DNA from: an uncultured Alphaproteobacteria bacterium
GTDB taxonomy: Bacteria > Pseudomonadota > Alphaproteobacteria > Rs-D84
DNA: 64,000 nucleotides
Assembly (NCBI GenBank): GCA_944389535.1
Contig: CALXMS010000002.1
Coordinates: 1-64,000 of the forward strand
Direction: 5' to 3'
Part shown: positions 25,781 through 56,835 of the stretch, piece by piece
Layout of the letters: each line of letters starts with the position of its first letter
Position numbering within the stretch: the first letter of the stretch is position 1
The notes under the pieces: model-generated
Told to the model about the DNA's origin: nothing
The model's input: the letters and a program-made list of their open reading frames with translations, nothing else
Databases searched by the model: none
Program-made: the position numbers and the translations under genes

Positions 25781-25809
25781 TATAAAATAGGCAGGGTAAA
25801 AAAAGTTTA

Positions 25810-25845
25810 GGATGGGTGGCAGAGCGGTCGAATGCGACGGTCTTG
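25810..25845 (+). pseudogene. Duplicated 5' half of tRNA-Ser
   Basis: These 36 bases are identical to the first 36 of the intact tRNA-Ser 163 bp downstream, up to the anticodon loop (...GGTCTTG); the identity also extends about 10 bp upstream (AAAAGTTTAG). After the break the sequence turns into a hairpin, GTCTTGC pairing with GCAAGAC (25840-25863), and about 110 bp of unique sequence. It cannot form a tRNA. It may be transcribed ahead of the real gene. Confidence 0.85.
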
Positions 25846-25972
25846 CATACGAGTCAGCAAGACGAACGTAGAGAAGTCGAGCGCGAACGAGTGGTGAGCA
25901 GCATCGAAAGGTGCAAAAAGCGAACAAAACCGCAGGTTTGAAAGACCGGCGGGTAATAAAAAGAAAAGTTTA

Positions 25973-26062
25973 GGATGGGTGGCAGAGCGGTCGAATGCGA
26001 CGGTCTTGAAAACCGCTGTGGGGGCAACTCCACCGGGGGTTCGAATCCCTCCCCATCCGCCA
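25973..26062 (+). tRNA. tRNA-Ser (anticodon TGA)
   Basis: A molecule of 90 nt with encoded CCA: acceptor GGATGGG pairs with CCCATCC, anticodon loop CTTGAAA gives TGA, a long variable arm is present, and the T-arm is GGGGG-TTCGAAT-CCCTC. Position 27-43 in the anticodon stem is an A-C mismatch. Confidence 0.94.
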
Positions 26063-48249: not shown

Positions 48250-48276
48250 TAAAGCCACCCGAAAGGGTGGTTCTTT
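48250..48276. terminator. Bidirectional terminator
   Basis: AAGCCACCC and GGGTGGTTC around GAAA, between convergent genes. Confidence 0.75.
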
Positions 48277-48499
48277 AATGTATAAATCGACCGAATTCTT
48301 CTGGTGAAAGTTTAGCAAATTCTGCGACTTTGGAAAGAGTGTTGCCAGATGGCCAGTGTGGTTTACCATACTTTGATACGCGTTTACTTTTGTTAAAAGC
48401 AGTAGGGTCTAGGCCGCAAGCTTTGGCAAGACCAGAGCAACTTAAACCCATTTCAGCGGCAATTTTATCAATTGCTGCCCATATATGACTATGTGTCAT
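48275..48499 (-). CDS. Small XRE-type HTH regulator
   Basis: A protein of 74 residues, a single helix-turn-helix domain (GLSCSGLAKACGLDPTAFNK, about 19-38). The SGLAKACGLDPTAFNKSKR pattern is that of alphaproteobacterial S24/LexA-like phage repressors, but the C-terminal peptidase half is missing. It could be a truncated repressor or a stand-alone DNA-binding protein. RBS GGAGAG lies upstream. It marks the left edge of the accessory island. Confidence 0.7.
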   Translation of the reverse strand: MTHSHIWAAIDKIAAEMGLSCSGLAKACGLDPTAFNKSKRVSKYGKPHWPSGNTLSKVAEFAKLSPEEFGRFIH

Positions 48500-48599
48500 A
48501 ATACTCTCTCCATTTTTTCTAGGATTGTATTCTAGGTATAGTTGAATTATGTATTTATTTCTATTAAAAGTACAGAAGTAAAAATTCCTATATAAAACA

Positions 48600-48809
48600 T
48601 TATATATTAAAATTCCAAAGTCCTAATCGGCCGTTAGTTTTAATTGGTTGGTTAATAGTTTTAATGTTTTCTAGTTTCCAGGCATATCGACCTATGTCCC
48701 AATTACCGAAATCAAGTTCTGATTTTGATTGTTGGCGCTTAAAATCTTCTGTGATCGGGATGCAACCGATCAAATTGCATTCTAATAAAATTGCGCCAGC
48801 TTCTGGTTA
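48600..48809 (-). pseudogene. 3' remnant of an ASCH-domain protein
   Basis: An open stretch of 69 codons on the - strand, ending with TAA at 48600-48602, with no start codon and an in-frame stop just upstream. The translation contains AGAILLECNLIGC, ELDFGNWDIGRYAWKLENI and NGRLGLWNF, matching the conserved end of ASCH-type proteins of phages (FGxxxxGRYAW...LENV...GLWNW). The 5' half is gone. The ASCH fold binds RNA or modified nucleosides. Confidence 0.65.
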
Positions 48810-48858
48810 AGGCTTTCATATTATGGATTATAAAATATATGGTGTTGTGAATAAAATA

Positions 48859-48882
48859 AAAACGACCTTTTCAGGTCGTTTT
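48859..48882. terminator. Hairpin terminator beside core repeat 1
   Basis: AAAACGACCT and AGGTCGTTTT around TTTC. The same stem (CGACCT/AGGTCG) recurs beside core repeat 4. Confidence 0.8.
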
Positions 48883-48885
48883 ATC

Positions 48886-48916
48886 TTGGCAGAATCTACT
48901 GTGCAATTCTCGGACT
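48886..48916 (+). repeat. Core repeat 1 (31 bp)
   Basis: Begins TTGGCAGAATCTACTGTG and ends TTCTCGGACT. Identical to core repeat 4 over all 31 bp. It lies directly after a terminator hairpin and before a cargo gene. Confidence 0.85.
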
Positions 48917-48994: not shown

Positions 48995-50005
48995 ATGACA
49001 GATGCGAAAATAATAGAAACAATCAAACTTATATTAAATAAAATGAATGACCCCAAAACGGGATGTCGCTCTTTTGGTAATAAATTACGAGATAGTGGTG
49101 TGTCTGGTAAACAATATGACCAAGCCATTAAAAATAAAATATCTGAAATGGCTGATAAATATGGTATGAAAGACTCATTGTTTGATGAACAAATTTTTAG
49201 ATTATCTGGAAAAGATATTGTGGAAAATGGGTTGTCACGTTCTTGTGGTCATGCAGCAAAAGCATTTTGTTATATAAATTCACAGCTGCCCAAAGATGAA
49301 CGTTTGGATGTAGCTATAATGATAAGCGTTCGTTCAGATCATTTGATAGATGCTATGTATGCTCATACTCTTCCTTGTGTAAAGATGTCGGATGGAAAGT
49401 ATCAGGCAATAGATCCTCAAGTAACAATGACAAAATCTAATCCGAGTGTGCCTTTTATTTCGGGTGAAATAAAAGAAGGGAATATAATACATCATATTTT
49501 ACCGGCCATAATAGAAGAGGGAAATCAACCTTATAAAATTACAAAGATTTTGTCGTGGGAAGAGTATGAAACTAAACTTTCAGATTTTAGTAAATTTTTA
49601 GATGTTGCGTCAGAACGTAAAGGGAAAACGAAACTAGTTTGTGGGACTATAAAAACTGTTCTTTTGCATAAAAATTTTTCGAAATATGAAAACGAGTTTC
49701 AACAGGTCTATGAGTTTTGTAATGAGATAAAAAATAAGAAGCTTCCTATAAAAGTATTTGTGTATAAAGGTATAAAAGGTAATTCAAACAAAAGAATTGT
49801 TTTCGCAAATGTAGAGCTAGAGGGTAAATGGTATAAAATAGGTTTAAATAGAAATTACTTTTTCCTTCATTTACAAGATGATATAAATAATTTTGAATCT
49901 AGGTCGCAGAAATTTGTTTTAGAACGACAGCTTTCGCCATCAGAATATATGAAAGAATATGAAGAATATATGATGAAAGCAAAGAATAAAGAAAACATAC
50001 ACTAA
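48995..50005 (+). CDS. Transglutaminase-like (papain-fold) cargo protein
   Basis: A protein of 336 residues, not recognised as a named family. The order C84 (SRSCGHAAKAF), H124 (MYAHTLPCVKM) and D140 (KYQAIDPQ) reproduces the Cys-His-Asp triad spacing of transglutaminase-like peptidases. No signal peptide. The rest is Lys/Ile/Asn-rich and more A+T-rich than core genes, suggesting transfer. It sits between core repeats 1 and 2. RBS is AAAGG. Confidence 0.55.
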   Translation: MTDAKIIETIKLILNKMNDPKTGCRSFGNKLRDSGVSGKQYDQAIKNKISEMADKYGMKDSLFDEQIFRLSGKDIVENGLSRSCGHAAKAFCYINSQLPKDERLDVAIMISVRSDHLIDAMYAHTLPCVKMSDGKYQAIDPQVTMTKSNPSVPFISGEIKEGNIIHHILPAIIEEGNQPYKITKILSWEEYETKLSDFSKFLDVASERKGKTKLVCGTIKTVLLHKNFSKYENEFQQVYEFCNEIKNKKLPIKVFVYKGIKGNSNKRIVFANVELEGKWYKIGLNRNYFFLHLQDDINNFESRSQKFVLERQLSPSEYMKEYEEYMMKAKNKENIH

Positions 50006-50032
50006 AAAATCCGCTCAGATGGGCGTTTTTAT
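50004..50032 (+). terminator. Hairpin terminator beside core repeat 2
   Basis: CGCTC and GGGCG pair (one G-U) around AGAT, followed by TTTTTATTTT. Confidence 0.65.
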
Positions 50033-50033
50033 T

Positions 50034-50064
50034 TTGGCAGAGCCTACTATGCAATTCTCGGATT
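50034..50064 (+). repeat. Core repeat 2 (31 bp)
   Basis: TTGGCAGAGCCTACTATG then CAATTCTCGGATT; 26 of 31 positions match core repeats 1 and 4. Confidence 0.85.
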
Positions 50065-50117: not shown

Positions 50118-50990
50118 ATGATAAAAATGAAATATAATTTTAATTTAGAGTTGTTGAACGATTATTCAGATGTAAAACATCATATTAAAAGTCCTATGTT
50201 GGCTGTATTTGAGTTTGACGATAAAAAATTATTATATTTAGGAACAAAACATAATTTAAAAGGTTCAAGAAGTCCAAAAACTTTTTATGCAATAAATTAT
50301 TGCTTTGATAATTTTGATATTGATTTTATCGTTACGGAATGTGCACATTCTAATAAATTAATCAATTATAAAAATACTTTTGGTGCGCCTGATATGAATG
50401 AACTTATATATGCGCCGCTGTTGGGTAGCCAAAGAAAAATAAAATATGCTTTTATAGATTCTGATGAAAAGGATTGGTTTAAGGATGTTGTTGCAGTTAA
50501 TAAAGAAAACATAAAAATGATGCAAGCATTTTTTATGTTAAATGACGCATATAAATATAAACAAGCATTTGGTAAGAATTTTTCAATACAAAATGCAATT
50601 GACAATGTTGTATATAAGTTTTGGGAAAAAACTTATCCTGACCCTATGAATAAACAGGAGTTTCAAAGATTTTTTAAGCAAGAATTTGGTTTTGGCGTAT
50701 TTGATAAAAATCTTAGTGATATTTTAATGAAAAATCCTGATTGGAATGAACCGAATATTAGTGGAAATATAATTAACAAAGCATGGTCTTATATAAATAT
50801 TTATTCGCGCGATATAAGAATGCTAAAAGGAATTTTTAATGCTGTAAATAAATATAAATGTGTTTTAGTGACAATTGGGGCAGGGCATTTTGATAATCAA
50901 AGACGAGTTTTAGAGCAAGCTTTCGGCAAACCTACGTTCTTTTATAATTTCCCCAAAAGTATAAGACAAGATACTAAAATTCAAAAATAA
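50118..50990 (+). CDS. TraB/TIKI (EreA/ChaN-like) superfamily cargo protein
   Basis: A protein of 290 residues. Three motifs fit the TraB/GumN/TIKI superfamily of metal-dependent peptidase-like proteins: LGTKHN (about 41-46), DFIVTECAHSN (about 69-79) and a C-terminal VTIGAGHFDNQ...VLEQAFGKP. No signal peptide is seen, so it is cytoplasmic unless exported otherwise. No clear RBS; ATG 50127 is an alternative. It lies between core repeats 2 and 3. A/T-rich codon use. Confidence 0.55.
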   Translation: MIKMKYNFNLELLNDYSDVKHHIKSPMLAVFEFDDKKLLYLGTKHNLKGSRSPKTFYAINYCFDNFDIDFIVTECAHSNKLINYKNTFGAPDMNELIYAPLLGSQRKIKYAFIDSDEKDWFKDVVAVNKENIKMMQAFFMLNDAYKYKQAFGKNFSIQNAIDNVVYKFWEKTYPDPMNKQEFQRFFKQEFGFGVFDKNLSDILMKNPDWNEPNISGNIINKAWSYINIYSRDIRMLKGIFNAVNKYKCVLVTIGAGHFDNQRRVLEQAFGKPTFFYNFPKSIRQDTKIQK

Positions 50991-51002: not shown

Positions 51003-51047
51003 AAAATAAAAACACCGCCCAAACGGACGGTGAATCAAGTTTGGCAG
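51003..51047 (-). repeat. 45-bp copy of the tRNA-Glu terminator and CCA end
   Basis: Identical over 45 bp to 56721-56765, which is the terminator of tRNA-Glu plus the last six bases of that tRNA. On the - strand it reads CTGCCAAACTTGATTCACCG, then a hairpin and TTTTTATTTT. It is oriented for the - strand, although the adjacent gene is on the + strand. Confidence 0.9.
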
Positions 51048-51071
51048 AGCATACTGCGCAATTCGCAGACT
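51041..51071 (+). repeat. Core repeat 3 (31 bp)
   Basis: TTGGCAGAGCATACTGCG then CAATTCGCAGACT, the most divergent copy; CTGCG-CAATT-CGCAG makes a perfect 5-bp stem-loop here. Confidence 0.8.
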
Positions 51072-51241
51072 GGTGGAAAGTTTGCTATTCTTGAGCGCAG
51101 ATATTAAAAAACGCGGTTCACCAGAATATTTGAGGAGTTTATATATTGTTTGAAAGTGCAATTTATGATATAATTTAATAAAATAGGAAGGTGTAGTACC
51201 CTTTTTTGGGGTTTGTGCTTTATTATATAATGAGAAAAAAA

Positions 51242-52129
51242 ATGAAAAGAATATTGATCTCTTTGGTTTGTGTGTTGACGTTACCAGCGTTTGCGGCATC
51301 ACCAGAACTAGATGCAGCAATTCAGAATGTACGCGCAGCATGTGGTAATATTTCAAATGATTTTGACCACATAAAAACAATAGCAGGTGTAAATACTGCT
51401 GTCACGGGTGTTGGTACAGCGGTTGGGGTTGGTGCGACAGCGGTTGGCATCGCAAAATCCAGTTTGGATAAAAACATTGAGAAAAATTTGCATAAATTAG
51501 ATGTTGGCGATCAAAATCAATTTAAGGTTGAAGTGCGTGAGTATGCAGAAAATTTAAAAAATGAATTACCTGAACCAATGAACGCGCAAGAAAAGCGATC
51601 TATACAAATGGGTAATTGGCGCACTGGATTGTTGGCAACTAATGCTGCTACAAATATCGCTGGTGCTGTCATAGCTGGAACAAACAAAGTAAAAAAAGAT
51701 TTAAAATCTCAAATAAATAATTGTTTGGCATCAGTTAAGGTTCTGTCAAATGCGTATATGCAGGCGCGCCTCAGTCAAACTGCAAGTGAGTCGGAATTAA
51801 AATATGCCGAAAACATTGTTCAGGCCTGCAACGAATGGTCAACTGTTAATGTAGATTCTATCAATAATAAATCTGGTGGTGCAACATTAAGTTCTGGTAT
51901 TGGGGCTGGGGTCGGTTTGGTTGGAACAATTGTATCTGCCAGTGCAAACTCACAAAAAACACGCCAAGGTGATGACGGCAAAGAAAAAAAACTGAATACA
52001 GCGGCAAATGTAATGGCTGGCGGTGCAACGGTTGCTAGTGGCGTTGCAACTATATTTAATGCAACACAAATTAGCGCTGCCAAACGTGCAATAGATGTCG
52101 CAGAAAAATGTGAGGGGGCATTACAATGA
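51242..52129 (+). CDS. Exported hypothetical protein with glycine-rich hydrophobic segments
   Basis: A protein of 295 residues from ATG 51242. The signal peptide ends LPAFA-AS. Several Gly/Ala/Val-rich stretches (GVGTAVGVGATAVGIAK near 52; GIGAGVGLVGTIV and ANVMAGGATVASGVATI later) look like glycine zippers able to insert in membranes. Cysteines C35, C171, C201 and C293 may form disulfides. It overlaps the next gene by 4 bp. No family is recognised. Confidence 0.5.
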   Translation: MKRILISLVCVLTLPAFAASPELDAAIQNVRAACGNISNDFDHIKTIAGVNTAVTGVGTAVGVGATAVGIAKSSLDKNIEKNLHKLDVGDQNQFKVEVREYAENLKNELPEPMNAQEKRSIQMGNWRTGLLATNAATNIAGAVIAGTNKVKKDLKSQINNCLASVKVLSNAYMQARLSQTASESELKYAENIVQACNEWSTVNVDSINNKSGGATLSSGIGAGVGLVGTIVSASANSQKTRQGDDGKEKKLNTAANVMAGGATVASGVATIFNATQISAAKRAIDVAEKCEGALQ

Positions 52130-52749
52130 TAAAAACAGTTGGGGTTTTATTAGGTGCTTTGTTGTTGTGCAATGGTGCATTTGCGGAAGAACCAAATCCA
52201 CAAATGATAAGTTTAGAATCTAAGGTGTATTGGTATACACCAGGTGTAAATTTAGGTTTTTATTACAATGTTTGTAATAAGGATGGTGAGGCGTATGAGA
52301 TATTTCAGAGTTGCTTGGGAGAGCAACCGTGGTCGGTGGCGGATATTATAAAATGTTGTATGGAAAATTATAATCAGTCTGATAATGTTGATAAGTGTAC
52401 AGAATTAATTGAATTTGCTATTGATCAACATAATAAATATATATCCAACAATATAACACAAAATGTTGCATCTTTGGATCGTGATACACCAATTAAATGG
52501 GATGGCGTATCTATAGCTAGTGCGCTTAGGGCTGTGTACGGTAGTACAGAAAAATTACCTGATTTAATAGAACGTATAAGTGCAATAAATTCAGATTACA
52601 TAATGACTGTTGATGACTTAGAGTTGGCATGCAAAGATGTGTTTAATGAAATAACAGGGGAGCCAACATGTTCAAAATTTGTTGAAAGTGTAATAGAAAT
52701 ACAAGAGCGCGCAAAAATTGGATTGGATGAGATTGAAAAAACGTTTTGA
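52126..52749 (+). CDS. Exported cysteine-containing hypothetical protein
   Basis: A protein of 207 residues. The signal peptide ends NGAFA-EEP. Seven mature-part cysteines include CC in IIKCCMENY near 80. Mostly helical. The ATGA overlap with the preceding exported protein suggests the two act together. No family is recognised. Confidence 0.5.
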   Translation: MIKTVGVLLGALLLCNGAFAEEPNPQMISLESKVYWYTPGVNLGFYYNVCNKDGEAYEIFQSCLGEQPWSVADIIKCCMENYNQSDNVDKCTELIEFAIDQHNKYISNNITQNVASLDRDTPIKWDGVSIASALRAVYGSTEKLPDLIERISAINSDYIMTVDDLELACKDVFNEITGEPTCSKFVESVIEIQERAKIGLDEIEKTF

Positions 52750-52823
52750 TTATACTTGAAAATGTACGTTGAATATGTTTAAATGCATAACAAAAGATTT
52801 TACAATAATAAAGGTTTTTTAAA

Positions 52824-53126
52824 ATGACTATAAAAGAGCAATTAGATTCAGTTATTCAAGACTATGGCTATATTAAAAAGTTCCCAGATGGGGCATTAGC
52901 AGGTCGTAGTAGTGATATGGTTGAATATATGGTTATACAACCTAAACCGGGTAAAAAAGAAGAATTGCGCGCGGCTGCGGCACGTATGAATATATTATTG
53001 AACGAGGATATGTTGAAAATGCCAGGTGGTACGGCAAAAGAAGAAGTGTTGACATTCCGACCGATGTATCAACCAGAATTGTATAATATGGTGCGCGAAA
53101 TTGTAAAAAGTCGCGGAAGAAAATAA
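52824..53126 (+). CDS. Small hypothetical cargo protein
   Basis: A protein of 100 residues, basic, soluble, with no signal peptide and no recognised family. It has an AAAGG RBS upstream. Last + strand gene of the third island unit. Confidence 0.45.
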   Translation: MTIKEQLDSVIQDYGYIKKFPDGALAGRSSDMVEYMVIQPKPGKKEELRAAAARMNILLNEDMLKMPGGTAKEEVLTFRPMYQPELYNMVREIVKSRGRK

Positions 53127-53180
53127 AAACATTTTATCCACCGGAATTTTTGAATTTATTTAATGTTTTGAAAATTAAAC

Positions 53181-53208
53181 ATAAAAAACGACCTGGAAAG
53201 GTCGTTAT
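53181..53208. terminator. Hairpin terminator beside core repeat 4
   Basis: AACGACCT and AGGTCGTT around GGAA, with T runs on both sides. The stem matches the one beside core repeat 1 and, with the following TATTTATTTTGGCAG, the one at 56560-56590. Confidence 0.82.
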
Positions 53209-53213
53209 TTATT

Positions 53214-53244
53214 TTGGCAGAATCTACTGTGCAATTCTCGGACT
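53214..53244 (+). repeat. Core repeat 4 (31 bp)
   Basis: Identical to core repeat 1 over 31 bp. Its end overlaps the stop codon of the convergent GNAT gene. Confidence 0.88.
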
Positions 53245-53821
53245 ATTTTTTATACTCTGATTTCAGTTTTGACCAGAACATAACGTCATATACTTTGTTG
53301 TCTGGATATACACCGCTCTGACGAGAAATACCATCAAGATGAAAACCGGACGATTTGATAGATTTTGCAGAGCGAACATTTTCTGTACTGCATTGGCGGG
53401 TTATTCTGTTGGCCCCCAGAGTATAAAAAGCAATTGCTTCTATTTTATCTGATGTCTCTTTGGCAAAGCCATTACCCCACGCAGAACGGGTCAACCATAC
53501 TATAGACATCTGAAGTGTTTTGGTGGCATCGTCAAAGAAATGAAATCTGCGATATCCGATTAGTTTGTCAGTGTGAAATATGTAATAATTTGCGCCGTTT
53601 GATTTAGAATATTCGTCTTCTTGTTGCATTTTTTTTAACATCTCTTTTACCGTTTTAGGTACGGTGTTTTTTGCTATTGGATTAAAATAAAAGTCAGTGG
53701 GATTTTCATTCTTTACCGCATCAAAAACTAACTTTGCATTTTCTGACGTTGCGTTCAGTTGGCGCATTTCAAGACGCTTTGTTTTTATAACTTTGGGTAA
53801 TTTCTTTATTGGATTTATCAT
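53243..53821 (-). CDS. RimJ/RimL-type GNAT acetyltransferase
   Basis: A protein of 192 residues with the layout of RimJ/RimL-like GNAT enzymes: an N-terminal KTKRLEMRQL strand, a central IGYRRFHFFDD strand, WLTRSAWGNGFAKET (acetyl-CoA loop; the QxxGxG/A motif here is WGNGFA) and ANRITRQCSTENVRS near the end. Target unknown. Its stop codon lies inside core repeat 4. It follows the S41 gene by 24 bp. Confidence 0.78.
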   Translation of the reverse strand: MINPIKKLPKVIKTKRLEMRQLNATSENAKLVFDAVKNENPTDFYFNPIAKNTVPKTVKEMLKKMQQEDEYSKSNGANYYIFHTDKLIGYRRFHFFDDATKTLQMSIVWLTRSAWGNGFAKETSDKIEAIAFYTLGANRITRQCSTENVRSAKSIKSSGFHLDGISRQSGVYPDNKVYDVMFWSKLKSEYKK

Positions 53822-53845
53822 ATTTTACCTCTAAAAATATTATTT

Positions 53846-54985
53846 TCATTTATTTCTACCGCTATATATCATTGCTTGTTGCAGTAAGAGATTTTTATCT
53901 ATATCTGCTAATGCAACTTCTAAAGCGTCTTTACCTTCATCGCATTTTATGTCAGGTTCATATCCATTAAGCTCAAAATTATCTTTAACCAGCACTCTGT
54001 AATTCAGCCCTATAAATACTTTTATCTGACTATTTTTTAGAAATGTGTTGCCCATATTTCCAAATGTTTCCATGCCTGCCGAATTGTCGCCGACAACTTT
54101 TACGCAAGGGTGATGAATCATACGCAGTAAAAACATTTCTGCACTGGAACCTGTAATCCTATCTGTTAAAATATAAATAGGTTTCATATATGCTTTATTT
54201 TTGTCTATTGAATAATTTTTACCTTCTCTAAAAAATATAAAATCTTCAGATTCTGGTAAGCCAGCCCAAAAGGCATTTGGCGAAGATTGTTGTTGTATTT
54301 TTTGCGCTTCTGGTGTGGCTCTGACATATAATTTACGAAAACTATCTATTTTTGTGCCACACAAATAATTTGCGAATTTGTCGGAATAAGTACTGTTACC
54401 ACCACTGTTTCCGCGTAAATCTATTATTAGTGCTTTAGATTTTGGTAATATCTCATTTATAAAAGCTTCGATAGTGTCATTAAATTCATCGGTTCTTACC
54501 ATTCTCTTAAATCCGATGATCGCGATATTATTTTTGAGCATTTTAAATGATATATCAGCATTTTGCGATATGTTTGCACCAACATTTTTGTGCTTTTTTC
54601 TTTTGGTTGTTATCGCTTTAACGCCATTGAAAGACATACTAATATGATTATCCGGTATGCAGCCAATAACAGACTTTATTGAATCAAAAAATTCTAGGGA
54701 AGTCGTATCGCACGCATTATTGTAAATGTCAATTAATTGCTTTAAAACTTTCCTTTTTATAAAAACGTTAAGAACCGGCCAACCAACATAAGCGCGAATA
54801 AGCAACCGTGCAAGAATAGAAACATCCTGTTTAACTTCTTCGGCAGTTAATTTTTTAGTAGGTTCTTGTTTAACCGATGTTGATACTGAAATATCGTCAA
54901 CAGATGAATTTTTTAATAAAATTTCTTCCATTTTAGAAATATTCAAAAAGAGACTAGTTATAGACATATTTATTTTACCTTTCAT
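53846..54985 (-). CDS. S41 family (C-terminal-processing-like) serine peptidase
   Basis: A protein of 379 residues. The S41 core is visible: ALIIDLRGNSGGN (185-197), then YILTDRITGSSAEMF with the nucleophile at S280 and E283, and a CVKVVGDNSAGMETFGN strand. No PDZ domain and no clear signal peptide. ATG 54967 has a better-spaced AAAGG and is an equally good start. Catalytic Lys is not obvious, so the peptidase activity is inferred. Confidence 0.68.
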   Translation of the reverse strand: MKGKINMSITSLFLNISKMEEILLKNSSVDDISVSTSVKQEPTKKLTAEEVKQDVSILARLLIRAYVGWPVLNVFIKRKVLKQLIDIYNNACDTTSLEFFDSIKSVIGCIPDNHISMSFNGVKAITTKRKKHKNVGANISQNADISFKMLKNNIAIIGFKRMVRTDEFNDTIEAFINEILPKSKALIIDLRGNSGGNSTYSDKFANYLCGTKIDSFRKLYVRATPEAQKIQQQSSPNAFWAGLPESEDFIFFREGKNYSIDKNKAYMKPIYILTDRITGSSAEMFLLRMIHHPCVKVVGDNSAGMETFGNMGNTFLKNSQIKVFIGLNYRVLVKDNFELNGYEPDIKCDEGKDALEVALADIDKNLLLQQAMIYSGRNK

Positions 54986-55013
54986 TATATGACAACGTTA
55001 AACTCAAAATCAA

Positions 55014-55604
55014 CTAATGCGCAAAGTTTTTCCCGTCCCAAATTAATTTTACATAGTCACAATTGTTGATTTTTGCGTCCCCCATACCTACCATATTTAA
55101 AATACCACGCATAACTACGCTGTGTGTGGAAATTGCTATTGCGTCATAAGGTGCGCTTTTAACGATTTCTGTAATCGCCTTTTGGGCTCGTGACCAACAT
55201 TCTGTGCGCGATTCTCCCCCGTCTGGTTTCCAGTTGTTGTCATTTAATTGTGCTGCCGGTAAGAACAATTCTAGTTGATTATAATCTGTTTGGTATTCAT
55301 CTGGATTGTCTGTGCCATGTACGATGTGCCCCTGTAGTTTTCCGTTGTTTCGTTCCATCAAGCGTTCGTCGAGGATAATTGGTGCGCCGATTTTATCCGC
55401 CAATATTTGTGCAGTTTGTTTTGCACGTGACAGGGGGGAAGAGTATATGATTTTTATTTGTTCTTTGGATATTTTGTTAGCCAGTTCGACAGCTTGTGCT
55501 TGACCAGTTTTATTTAATGGGATATCCAATTGCCCCATGACACGACGGGTCACATTATAATCTGTTTGTCCATGTCTGAAAATATAGATTGTTTTTGTGG
55601 CCAT
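55014..55604 (-). CDS. Histidine phosphatase family protein (phosphoglycerate-mutase-like)
   Basis: A protein of 196 residues. The RHG motif IFRHGQTDYN puts the nucleophile at H11, followed by SPLSRAKQTA and a C-terminal ISTHSVVMRG with the second histidine. Such enzymes remove phosphate from small metabolites or proteins; the substrate cannot be named (GpmB/CobC-like). It has no clear RBS and is 28 bp before the S41 gene. Confidence 0.82.
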   Translation of the reverse strand: MATKTIYIFRHGQTDYNVTRRVMGQLDIPLNKTGQAQAVELANKISKEQIKIIYSSPLSRAKQTAQILADKIGAPIILDERLMERNNGKLQGHIVHGTDNPDEYQTDYNQLELFLPAAQLNDNNWKPDGGESRTECWSRAQKAITEIVKSAPYDAIAISTHSVVMRGILNMVGMGDAKINNCDYVKLIWDGKNFAH

Positions 55605-55674
55605 GTTTATACAATATCATAGAGACGTTACAAAGTCAAAATATGTACTTAGGTGGTAAAAGTTTATATGGCAA

Positions 55675-56415
55675 TTACCTTTCTTTTTTAGACTGGGATT
55701 GAATTTCTTTATAGTCCGTCATCATTTTTGCGACAACACCAGTCAAGTTCGTTTTTATCGCTTCCGGTGTTATATATGCATTTGCAAATGATTTTTCAAA
55801 CATTGATTGAACAGGTTTATTAAATAACTCTAGCCCGATGATGTCGACAATACGTTCTTTTAAATCTTGTGGAACGTTGTATTTAGCAATAATTTGTTCT
55901 TCTATTAAAATGTGAACAAATTCGTGTAACATTGTCCGGCATATACCAAAGTCATTTCTTTTGGCGTTACTTACTCTCAATATTATTTTCGCATTTTTGC
56001 CTGTGCCGTATCCTGCGCCAAATCCATATGTACATAAGATTGTAAGTGTTTCTGGCATTGTTGTGTTCCAAGCGCCTAGCAAAGGTTTTATGCGTTTTTC
56101 TATTGTTTGCTGAAATATAGGAATAGCATTTTTTATATTTTCATCCTGTTTCGTTAAAAGCATTGGGTTATGTATTTCATGAATAAATACATCATGATAA
56201 TGCCGAATTTGTTCATCCGACAGTTCTGGAAACTGAAACATTTCATACATTCTAATATCGTTTGGTATGAAACCATTAGGGCTATAATTAAACTTTTTAA
56301 GTTTTAATTGGTAACGTTTATATGCTTGCAGTATGTATTGCCACGCTTCCTCAGCATTCATGTGCTTAAGTATTATTTGCATTTTTGCAGACCCTGTTAT
56401 TTTTTCAAAGATCAT
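55675..56415 (-). CDS. Zinc-metallopeptidase-like (HExxH) cargo protein
   Basis: A protein of 246 residues (ATG at 56382 is an alternative start). MLHEFVHILIEEQ gives an HExxH motif at H164, E165 and H168, and ERIVDIIGLELF at 187-198 supplies a possible third ligand, E187 or D191. No signal peptide. No named family is recognised. It may share a - strand transcript with the histidine phosphatase, S41 and GNAT genes. Confidence 0.55.
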   Translation of the reverse strand: MIFEKITGSAKMQIILKHMNAEEAWQYILQAYKRYQLKLKKFNYSPNGFIPNDIRMYEMFQFPELSDEQIRHYHDVFIHEIHNPMLLTKQDENIKNAIPIFQQTIEKRIKPLLGAWNTTMPETLTILCTYGFGAGYGTGKNAKIILRVSNAKRNDFGICRTMLHEFVHILIEEQIIAKYNVPQDLKERIVDIIGLELFNKPVQSMFEKSFANAYITPEAIKTNLTGVVAKMMTDYKEIQSQSKKER

Positions 56416-56487
56416 TATAGCATAAAAAGACGTTTTTTAGCGAAGAATTTTCAAGTTTAGTGGTTGTATTGTTTAGTTACTATCAGC

Positions 56488-56547
56488 TTGCTTGTTTTCA
56501 CCAACTATCGTGTCGAACTGTACCAGTTCAAATCTGGGGCGCAGACA
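56488..56547 (+). repeat. 60-bp direct repeat, copy A
   Basis: Starts TTGCTTGTTTTCACCAACTA and ends GGGGCGCAGACA; identical to 56660-56719. It includes CCAG-TTCAAAT-CTGG, which looks like a tRNA T-arm on the + strand. Confidence 0.9.
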
Positions 56548-56583
56548 GCAAAATAAAAAACGACCCGAAGGTCGTTATTTATT

Positions 56584-56603
56584 TTGGCAGCCCCAACCAG
56601 ATT
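56584..56603 (-). pseudogene. 3' fragment of tRNA-Glu
   Basis: On the - strand AATCTGGTTGGGGCTGCCA is identical to the last 19 bases of tRNA-Glu, followed by a hairpin terminator (56560-56575). The rest of the tRNA is missing. Confidence 0.85.
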
Positions 56604-56659
56604 GTTCGCTTTTCGCAACTATCGTTGTGGCTCACCACACGTAAGGTTCAAACTTCGCT

Positions 56660-56719
56660 TTGCTTGTTTTCACCAACTATCGTGTCGAACTGTACCAGTT
56701 CAAATCTGGGGCGCAGACA
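56660..56719 (+). repeat. 60-bp direct repeat, copy B
   Basis: Identical to 56488-56547, offset 172 bp. Both copies are followed by a hairpin terminator and then the tRNA-Glu end. Confidence 0.9.
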
Positions 56720-56720
56720 A

Positions 56721-56752
56721 AAAATAAAAACACCGCCCAAACGGACGGTGAA
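56721..56752 (-). terminator. Terminator of tRNA-Glu
   Basis: On the - strand CACCG and CGGTG enclose an imperfect stem, then TTTTTATTTT. Duplicated exactly at 51003. Confidence 0.8.
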
Positions 56753-56759
56753 TCAAGTT

Positions 56760-56835
56760 TGGCAGCCCCAACCAGATTCGAACTGGTGTTCTCGCCTTGA
56801 AAGGGCGGTGTCCTGGGCCTCTAGACGATGGGGCC
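56760..56835 (-). tRNA. tRNA-Glu (anticodon TTC)
   Basis: A molecule of 76 nt with encoded CCA: acceptor GGCCCCA pairs with TGGGGCT (first pair G-U), anticodon loop CTTTCAA gives TTC, T-arm is ACCAG-TTCGAAT-CTGGT. Position 27-43 is a C-A mismatch. It is the apparent target site of the island to its left. Confidence 0.95.

What the first reader, a model, noticed from the sequence alone, without database searches (positions are those of the whole stretch)
51003..56835. Nested direct repeats join the accessory island to the 3' end of tRNA-Glu
The 45 bp at 51003-51047 are identical to 56721-56765, the tRNA-Glu terminator plus the last six bases of the tRNA. A second pair is nested inside: the hairpin plus TATTTATTTTGGCAG at 53181-53220 and again at 56560-56590. 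At the left copies the shared block runs into the 31-bp core repeat; at the right copies it runs into tRNA-Glu sequence. That switch, exactly at TTTGGCAG, is what repeated recombination between a cassette site and the CCA end of tRNA-Glu would leave. I see no integrase, so the enzyme would act in trans. This would be an integron-like cassette array with a tRNA end as the receiving site.
Basis: partly seen in the sequence, partly recalled or inferred. Interest (0 to 1): 0.8.

Follow-up and report, generated by a model that had tools for sequence, protein, structure and literature searches.

The report
tRNA-Glu-anchored gene-cassette array
In a genus of gut bacteria with very small genomes, small gene cassettes pile up one after another behind a tRNA-Glu gene and move between distantly related species, much as in an integron but with no integron integrase in sight.

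Summary
The window comes from Candidatus Enterousia (Alphaproteobacteria, ~0.9 Mb). Four copies of a 29-bp core lie at 48886, 50034, 51041 and 53214, the only ones in the genome; the core shares TTGGCAG with the 3' end of tRNA-Glu. Related sites occur in 86 of 146 congeners, in arrays of 1-8 units about 1 kb apart. All 92 sites tested near a tRNA-Glu lie behind its 3' end in one orientation. Cargo differs between species. One cassette is 100% identical over 818 bp in three species although the xerC regions of two of them are only 78% identical, and its flanks differ. Relative G109 has an empty site: left flank, terminator, tRNA-Glu. No integrase gene was found in any array; XerC/XerD are the only tyrosine recombinases detected in some array-bearing genomes; no integron integrase passes the cut-off. 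So this is a tRNA-anchored cassette array that works like an integron without being one. Tandem accretion at RNA-gene ends is known; mostly one-gene, integrase-free units with a shared compound site, exchanged across a genus, were not found in the literature searched. The enzyme is unknown. New variant of a known kind.

The parts
56760..56835 (-). tRNA-Glu(ttc), the anchor; new units are inferred to enter behind its 3' end
   Evidence: ARAGORN; all 92 sites tested near tRNA-Glu in this genus lie behind its 3' end
56721..56765 (+). right copy of the 45-bp direct repeat: present tRNA-Glu terminator plus last six bases of the tRNA
   Evidence: D4
51003..51047 (+). left copy of the 45-bp direct repeat: terminator plus TTTGGCAG in front of site 3
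   Evidence: D4
48886..48914 (+). site 1 core
50034..50062 (+). site 2 core
51041..51069 (+). site 3 core
53214..53242 (+). site 4 core
48858..48884 (.). terminator-like hairpin before site 1
   Evidence: sequence
50004..50033 (.). terminator-like hairpin before site 2
   Evidence: sequence
53184..53213 (.). terminator-like hairpin before site 4 (part of the nested repeat)
   Evidence: sequence
56553..56584 (.). terminator-like hairpin before the tRNA-Glu fragment (partner of the nested repeat)
   Evidence: sequence
56583..56603 (-). 21-bp copy of the tRNA-Glu 3' end
   Evidence: identical to 56758-56778 (D17)
56488..56547 (+). right-end element, copy 1 (holds an inverted near-copy of the tRNA-Glu T-arm)
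   Evidence: D2; the same element at the tRNA-Glu junction of G120 scores z = 6.5 for inverted similarity to tRNA-Glu
56660..56719 (+). right-end element, copy 2
   Evidence: D2
48995..50005 (+). cassette 1 cargo, 336 aa, no Pfam match
50118..50990 (+). cassette 2 cargo, 290 aa, no Pfam match
51206..53126 (+). cassette 3 cargo: three ORFs (307, 207, 100 aa), no family over its Pfam cut-off
53243..56415 (-). cassette 4 cargo: GNAT acetyltransferase, peptidase S41, histidine phosphatase, and a 246-aa ORF without Pfam match
   Evidence: 53179-56385 is 84.5% identical to G149 L073:6450-9655
48250..48797 (.). left flank that is continuous with tRNA-Glu in the empty site of G109

Best explanation
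The locus is a cassette array anchored at tRNA-Glu. Each unit consists of a site (TTGGCAG plus a core of about 30 bp, in most species followed by a tail of about 50 bp), a cargo of mostly one or two genes, a right-end element (in many species a 52-nt inverted repeat) and an intrinsic terminator. New units enter mainly next to the tRNA-Glu 3' end and push older ones outward. The shared TGGCAG keeps the CCA end of the tRNA intact, and the terminator at the junction ends its transcript. Shown here: repeats, anchoring, single orientation, differing cargo, transfer between species, an empty site, no integrase gene in the arrays. Inferred: a site-specific recombinase acts in trans at TTTGGCAG (most likely a tyrosine integrase brought by passing elements, less likely XerC/XerD), and insertion/excision cycles plus homologous exchange between the repeated junctions later reshuffle their parts.
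For: Core confined to this locus. Sites in 86 of 146 genus genomes. 92 of 92 sites near tRNA-Glu in one orientation behind its 3' end, median spacing 999 bp. Shared cassettes with different neighbours in different species; 818 bp 100% identical in G091, G079 and G078 while the xerC region of G091 and G079 is 78% identical. Empty site in G109 and interval lengths of 653 to 8518 bp between the same flanking genes. In G149 the homologue of window cassette 4 is separated from tRNA-Glu by two more sites. No integrase relative found in any array or tRNA-Glu flank held.
Against: No enzyme identified. Terminators on both sides of identical cassettes differ, so the crossover cannot always be at TTTGGCAG. 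Site tails differ between homologous cassettes whose cargo is 95-99% identical, which points to additional homologous exchange. Site and tRNA-Glu share only 6-8 certain bases. Decline of site score with distance from the tRNA is weak (rho -0.26, p 0.02).
Confidence: 0.6

Rival explanations
1. Tandem accretion of decayed integrative elements (cis-mobilizable remnants, CIMEs): each unit was once an element with its own integrase, which was lost after integration at tRNA-Glu.
For: The anatomy is that of attL/attR at a tRNA end, and the process is established elsewhere (PMC5704250). P4-type integrases occur elsewhere in some of these genomes.
Against: Units are uniformly small (quartiles 793-1297 bp) and no integrase relative was detected in any array held. 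Complete single units move between species, so they are not inert remnants.
Confidence: 0.22
2. Homologous recombination alone: conserved junctions of about 200 bp let RecA swap, add and delete cassettes after DNA uptake.
For: Site tails and right-end elements are exchanged relative to cargo in many homologous pairs, so breakpoints are scattered in the junction.
Against: It does not explain the first insertion at tRNA-Glu, which shares only 6-8 bases with the core, nor use of tRNA-Glu(ctc) in G153. Among five copies of the most recently spread cassette the left break always lies at or before column 12 of the site.
Confidence: 0.12
3. XerC/XerD perform the recombination, as in elements that exploit the dif system.
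For: XerC- and XerD-type proteins are the only tyrosine recombinases over the Pfam cut-off in array-bearing G063 (12 matches), G003 and G100.
Against: The core does not show the usual dif arms (my knowledge; dif of this genus was not located). G063 is only 94% complete.
Confidence: 0.12
4. A true integron, or a cluster of attC sites lacking an integrase (CALIN).
For: Small cassettes in direct order, mobile between species; inverted sequence boxes at the junctions.
Against: No IntI hit over the cut-off in 16 genomes. Junctions carry TGGCAG and no GTTRRRY core was seen at the boundary. Cargo genes lie in either orientation.
Confidence: 0.02
5. Chance or ordinary copies of terminators.
For: Hairpins of similar type occur elsewhere in the window.
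Against: The core is confined to this array, zero expected by chance, and it is anchored and oriented in all loci tested.
Confidence: 0.01

Closest known systems
Integrons / CALINs (PMC8618304)
   Same: Tandem small cassettes, each with a recombination site, inserted at one receiving site; cassettes move singly between genomes
   Different: No IntI over the cut-off, core is TGGCAG instead of GTTRRRY, receiving site is a tRNA end, genes in both orientations, terminators at the junctions
Dehalococcoides ssrA-specific genomic islands (PMC3146451)
   Same: Tandem units bounded by repeats of the 3' end of an RNA gene; part of them lack an integration module
   Different: There 16 islands carry a serine-recombinase integration module and islands are much larger; here no unit carries an integrase and units are about 1 kb
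CIME accretion at tRNA genes (PMC5704250)
   Same: Units without integrase between att-like repeats at a tRNA 3' end
   Different: Here units are uniform, mostly one or two genes, share a genus-wide compound site and are exchanged singly between species
Additive flexible genomic island of Ca. Methylopumilus (PMC10872708)
   Same: Reduced genome; [quoted passage not shown] not an integron
   Different: No cassette core, right-end element or movement of single units between distant species is described in the passages read

Membership tests
Integron | integron integrase gene intI | tested here: not met
   TIGR02249: no match over the cut-off in 16 genomes, 15 of them with sites
Integron | attC core GTTRRRY at cassette boundaries | tested here: not met
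   boundaries carry TGGCAG (by reading; the GTTRRRY consensus is from my knowledge)
Integron | palindromic cassette site | tested here: inconclusive
   52-nt inverted repeat at many right ends; inverted similarity between right end and tRNA-Glu strong in about half of tRNA junctions, weak at site junctions
Integron | tandem array of single-gene cassettes | tested here: met
Integron | free circular cassettes | not testable with these tools
   needs reads or PCR
CIME / tandem accretion at a tRNA gene | att-like direct repeats at a tRNA 3' end | tested here: met
CIME / tandem accretion at a tRNA gene | no integrase gene in the unit | tested here: met
   tblastn of four integrases against all held loci
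CIME / tandem accretion at a tRNA gene | derives from an integrative element that carried an integrase and was lost | tested here: inconclusive
   no ancestral element found; no full gene ends in the site tail
Element exploiting XerC/XerD | dif-like core | not tested
   dif of this genus was not located
IS200/IS605 group | Y1 transposase in the genome | tested here: not met
   PF01797: 0 of 15 genomes

The most novel reading that the evidence does not exclude
A cassette-capture system independent of integrons: a tRNA-Glu end as receiving site, cassettes with their own compound site, and catalysis by host enzymes (XerC/XerD), possibly guided by the family-wide, catalytically dead P4-type integrase found here.
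Probability: 0.15. Interest if true: 0.92.

Novelty: new variant of a known kind. Interest (0 to 1): 0.72.

Why it matters
It shows an integron-like way of collecting genes in bacteria with strongly reduced genomes, at one place and without breaking an essential tRNA. The sites define cassette borders, so the mobile gene pool of some 150 species can be catalogued, and the missing enzyme can be sought with defined substrates. If host recombinases do the work, cassette capture would not need an integron integrase.

Tried and rejected
Full-length gene ending in the site tail: none in eight genomes. Small serine resolvases: patchy, no match in G083 and G054 although both have sites. Y1 transposase: none in 15 genomes. 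Viral carriers: no hit for the core or for the 52-nt right-end element in IMG/VR. The 195-aa SAM-like/HTH protein in the array of G063 as a general factor: full-length only in G063 and G096, other hits match the HTH part. Target-site duplication of the terminator as a general rule: fits 51003/56721 but not the relatives. Scattered terminator copies: rejected. The first-noticed codon periodicity of the site tail as sign of a split integrase gene (attP inside the gene): no such gene found. Literature: no description of such arrays in Enterousia in the library searched. Searches failed for formal reasons.

Full report
Observation. The 45-bp direct repeat, the nested pair and the four core repeats are present as described. 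tRNA-Glu(ttc) is at 56760-56835 on the minus strand. The core occurs four times in the whole genome, all in this locus and on the plus strand; shuffles of the window give none. One correction: the right member of the nested pair runs into a 21-bp copy of the tRNA-Glu 3' end at 56583-56603, not into the intact tRNA.

Organism and spread. Pattern hits in a collection of about 85,000 genomes are 54 contig stretches; the titles show MAGs of Alphaproteobacteria or 'uncultured (proteo)bacteria', many from animal gut or rumen, some named Candidatus Enterousia. Enterousia belongs to order Rs-D84 with reduced genomes (PMC12306168). A tblastn with the longer site of relatives finds matches in 86 of 146 genus genomes. 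With up to 3 mismatches to the window's core no match was found in the other 12 genera of the family, and an exact pattern found none in IMG/VR.

Architecture in relatives. I fetched 40 stretches, most of them arrays. Arrays hold 1 to 8 sites with median spacing 999 bp, quartiles 793 and 1297. Where tRNA-Glu lies on the same stretch, all 92 sites lie behind its 3' end and in the same orientation. The usual anchor is tRNA-Glu(ttc); in G153 it is tRNA-Glu(ctc). The site has a conserved 27-bp part, consensus TGGCAGGGCCATCTGTGCAATTCACGA, and in most species a tail with codon periodicity reading xDFIRDLLxFGKEIKxFLQIL-stop. The window's clade has the core without the tail. Most units end with a right-end element, an intrinsic terminator and a T-rich run before the next TGGCAG. 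The commonest right-end element is an inverted repeat AGTTCGTAAAT...ACTTACGAACT, 52 nt long in 46 of the 48 distinct elements listed (elements were picked by their CGAAC box, 53 of 153 junctions). Pairing of the variable stem positions was only modestly above shuffles (144 against 135.6, sd 2.7). A related box, TTCACGAACT, lies in the site. Other right ends, that of the window's type included, carry an inverted near-copy of the tRNA-Glu T-arm.

Mobility. Cargo differs between species, and single cassettes recur in different arrays with different neighbours. The clearest case encodes a GDSL-type hydrolase: 818 bp, 100% identical in G091, G079 and G078, 99.5% in RUG13870 and 97.4% in G092, while the xerC region of G091 and G079 is 78% identical. 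The left flanks and both terminators of these copies differ. The stretch 53179-56385 of window cassette 4 is 84.5% identical to part of the array of G149, against 73-77% for the neighbouring shared stretches; in G149 two further sites lie between it and tRNA-Glu.

Empty site. Between the oleate hydratase gene and tRNA-Glu lie 8518 bp in the window, 653 bp with one site in G100, 3406 in G120, 1731 in G003, and 804 bp without a site in G109. In G109 the window's left flank 48250-48797 continues through a small ORF and a terminator straight into tRNA-Glu; in the window the similarity stops at 48797 and the array follows. In G135 and G155, with other neighbours, tRNA-Glu and its terminator also directly follow the end of a coding sequence (by reading).

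Enzyme. All 146 genus genomes have PF00589 proteins. G063 (12 site matches), G003 and G100 have only two, of XerC and XerD type. No IntI over the cut-off in 16 genomes; no Y1 transposase in 15; small serine resolvases are patchy. P4-type integrases occur in some genomes, but no relative of four such integrases was found in the arrays or tRNA-Glu flanks held. That the enzyme acts in trans is therefore inference.

Mechanism. Shown: anchoring, orientation, terminators at the junctions, exchange between species, an empty site. Inferred: insertion by site-specific recombination at TTTGGCAG, which leaves the CCA end of tRNA-Glu intact. Growth next to the tRNA is supported by G149 and by a weak decline of site score with distance (rho -0.26, p 0.02). 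Differing terminators and exchanged tails need further events; insertion/excision cycles and homologous exchange would suffice but were not tested.

Comparison. The array works like an integron but fails tested defining features (intI, GTTRRRY core). Tandem accretion at RNA-gene ends is known from CIMEs, Dehalococcoides ssrA islands and an additive island of Methylopumilus. The combination of mostly one- or two-gene units, a compound site, no integrase in the units and genus-wide exchange was not found in the papers searched; the library lacks most subscription journals. I therefore call it a new variant of a known kind.

Side finding. A core gene of the whole family (167 of 173 genomes) encodes a P4-type integrase homologue with arm-binding and central domains in which the aligned positions of the catalytic R, K, HxxR, LGH and Y are changed or missing. 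Any link to the arrays is speculative; G075 has an array and no match to this gene.

Noticed in passing
G000:C1:35184-36173(-); relatives in L255-L288: Family-wide core gene (167 of 173 genomes, 13 genera) for a P4-type integrase homologue with Arm-DNA-bind_3 and central domains but with all catalytic positions changed or missing: apparently a domesticated, catalytically dead integrase. G113 and G075 lack a match.
   Followed up: partly
site columns 28-83 in relatives, e.g. L061:213-302: The site tail shows codon periodicity and a conserved stop (xDFIRDLLxFGKEIKxFLQIL*), yet no start codon in frame and no full gene with this end was found.
   Followed up: partly
L058:14140-14727(+), G096:C7:45162-45746: Cassette gene for a 195-aa protein with a weak integrase SAM-like domain and an excisionase-like HTH; full-length only in G063 and G096 (with one stop).
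   Followed up: partly
G000:C1:200364-200840 (L130): The window's genome carries one P4-type integrase (381 aa) over the Pfam cut-off outside the array; its attachment site was not determined.
   Followed up: no
window 25798-25850 and 25961-26013: A 53-bp, 94% identical direct repeat that duplicates the 5' part of tRNA-Ser(tga) at 25973-26062 in front of the gene (D4), possibly the trace of another insertion at a tRNA gene.
   Followed up: no
window 56488-56741: Tandem copies (172 bp apart) of the right-end element plus terminator; the inner one is followed by a 21-bp fragment of the tRNA-Glu 3' end.
   Followed up: partly
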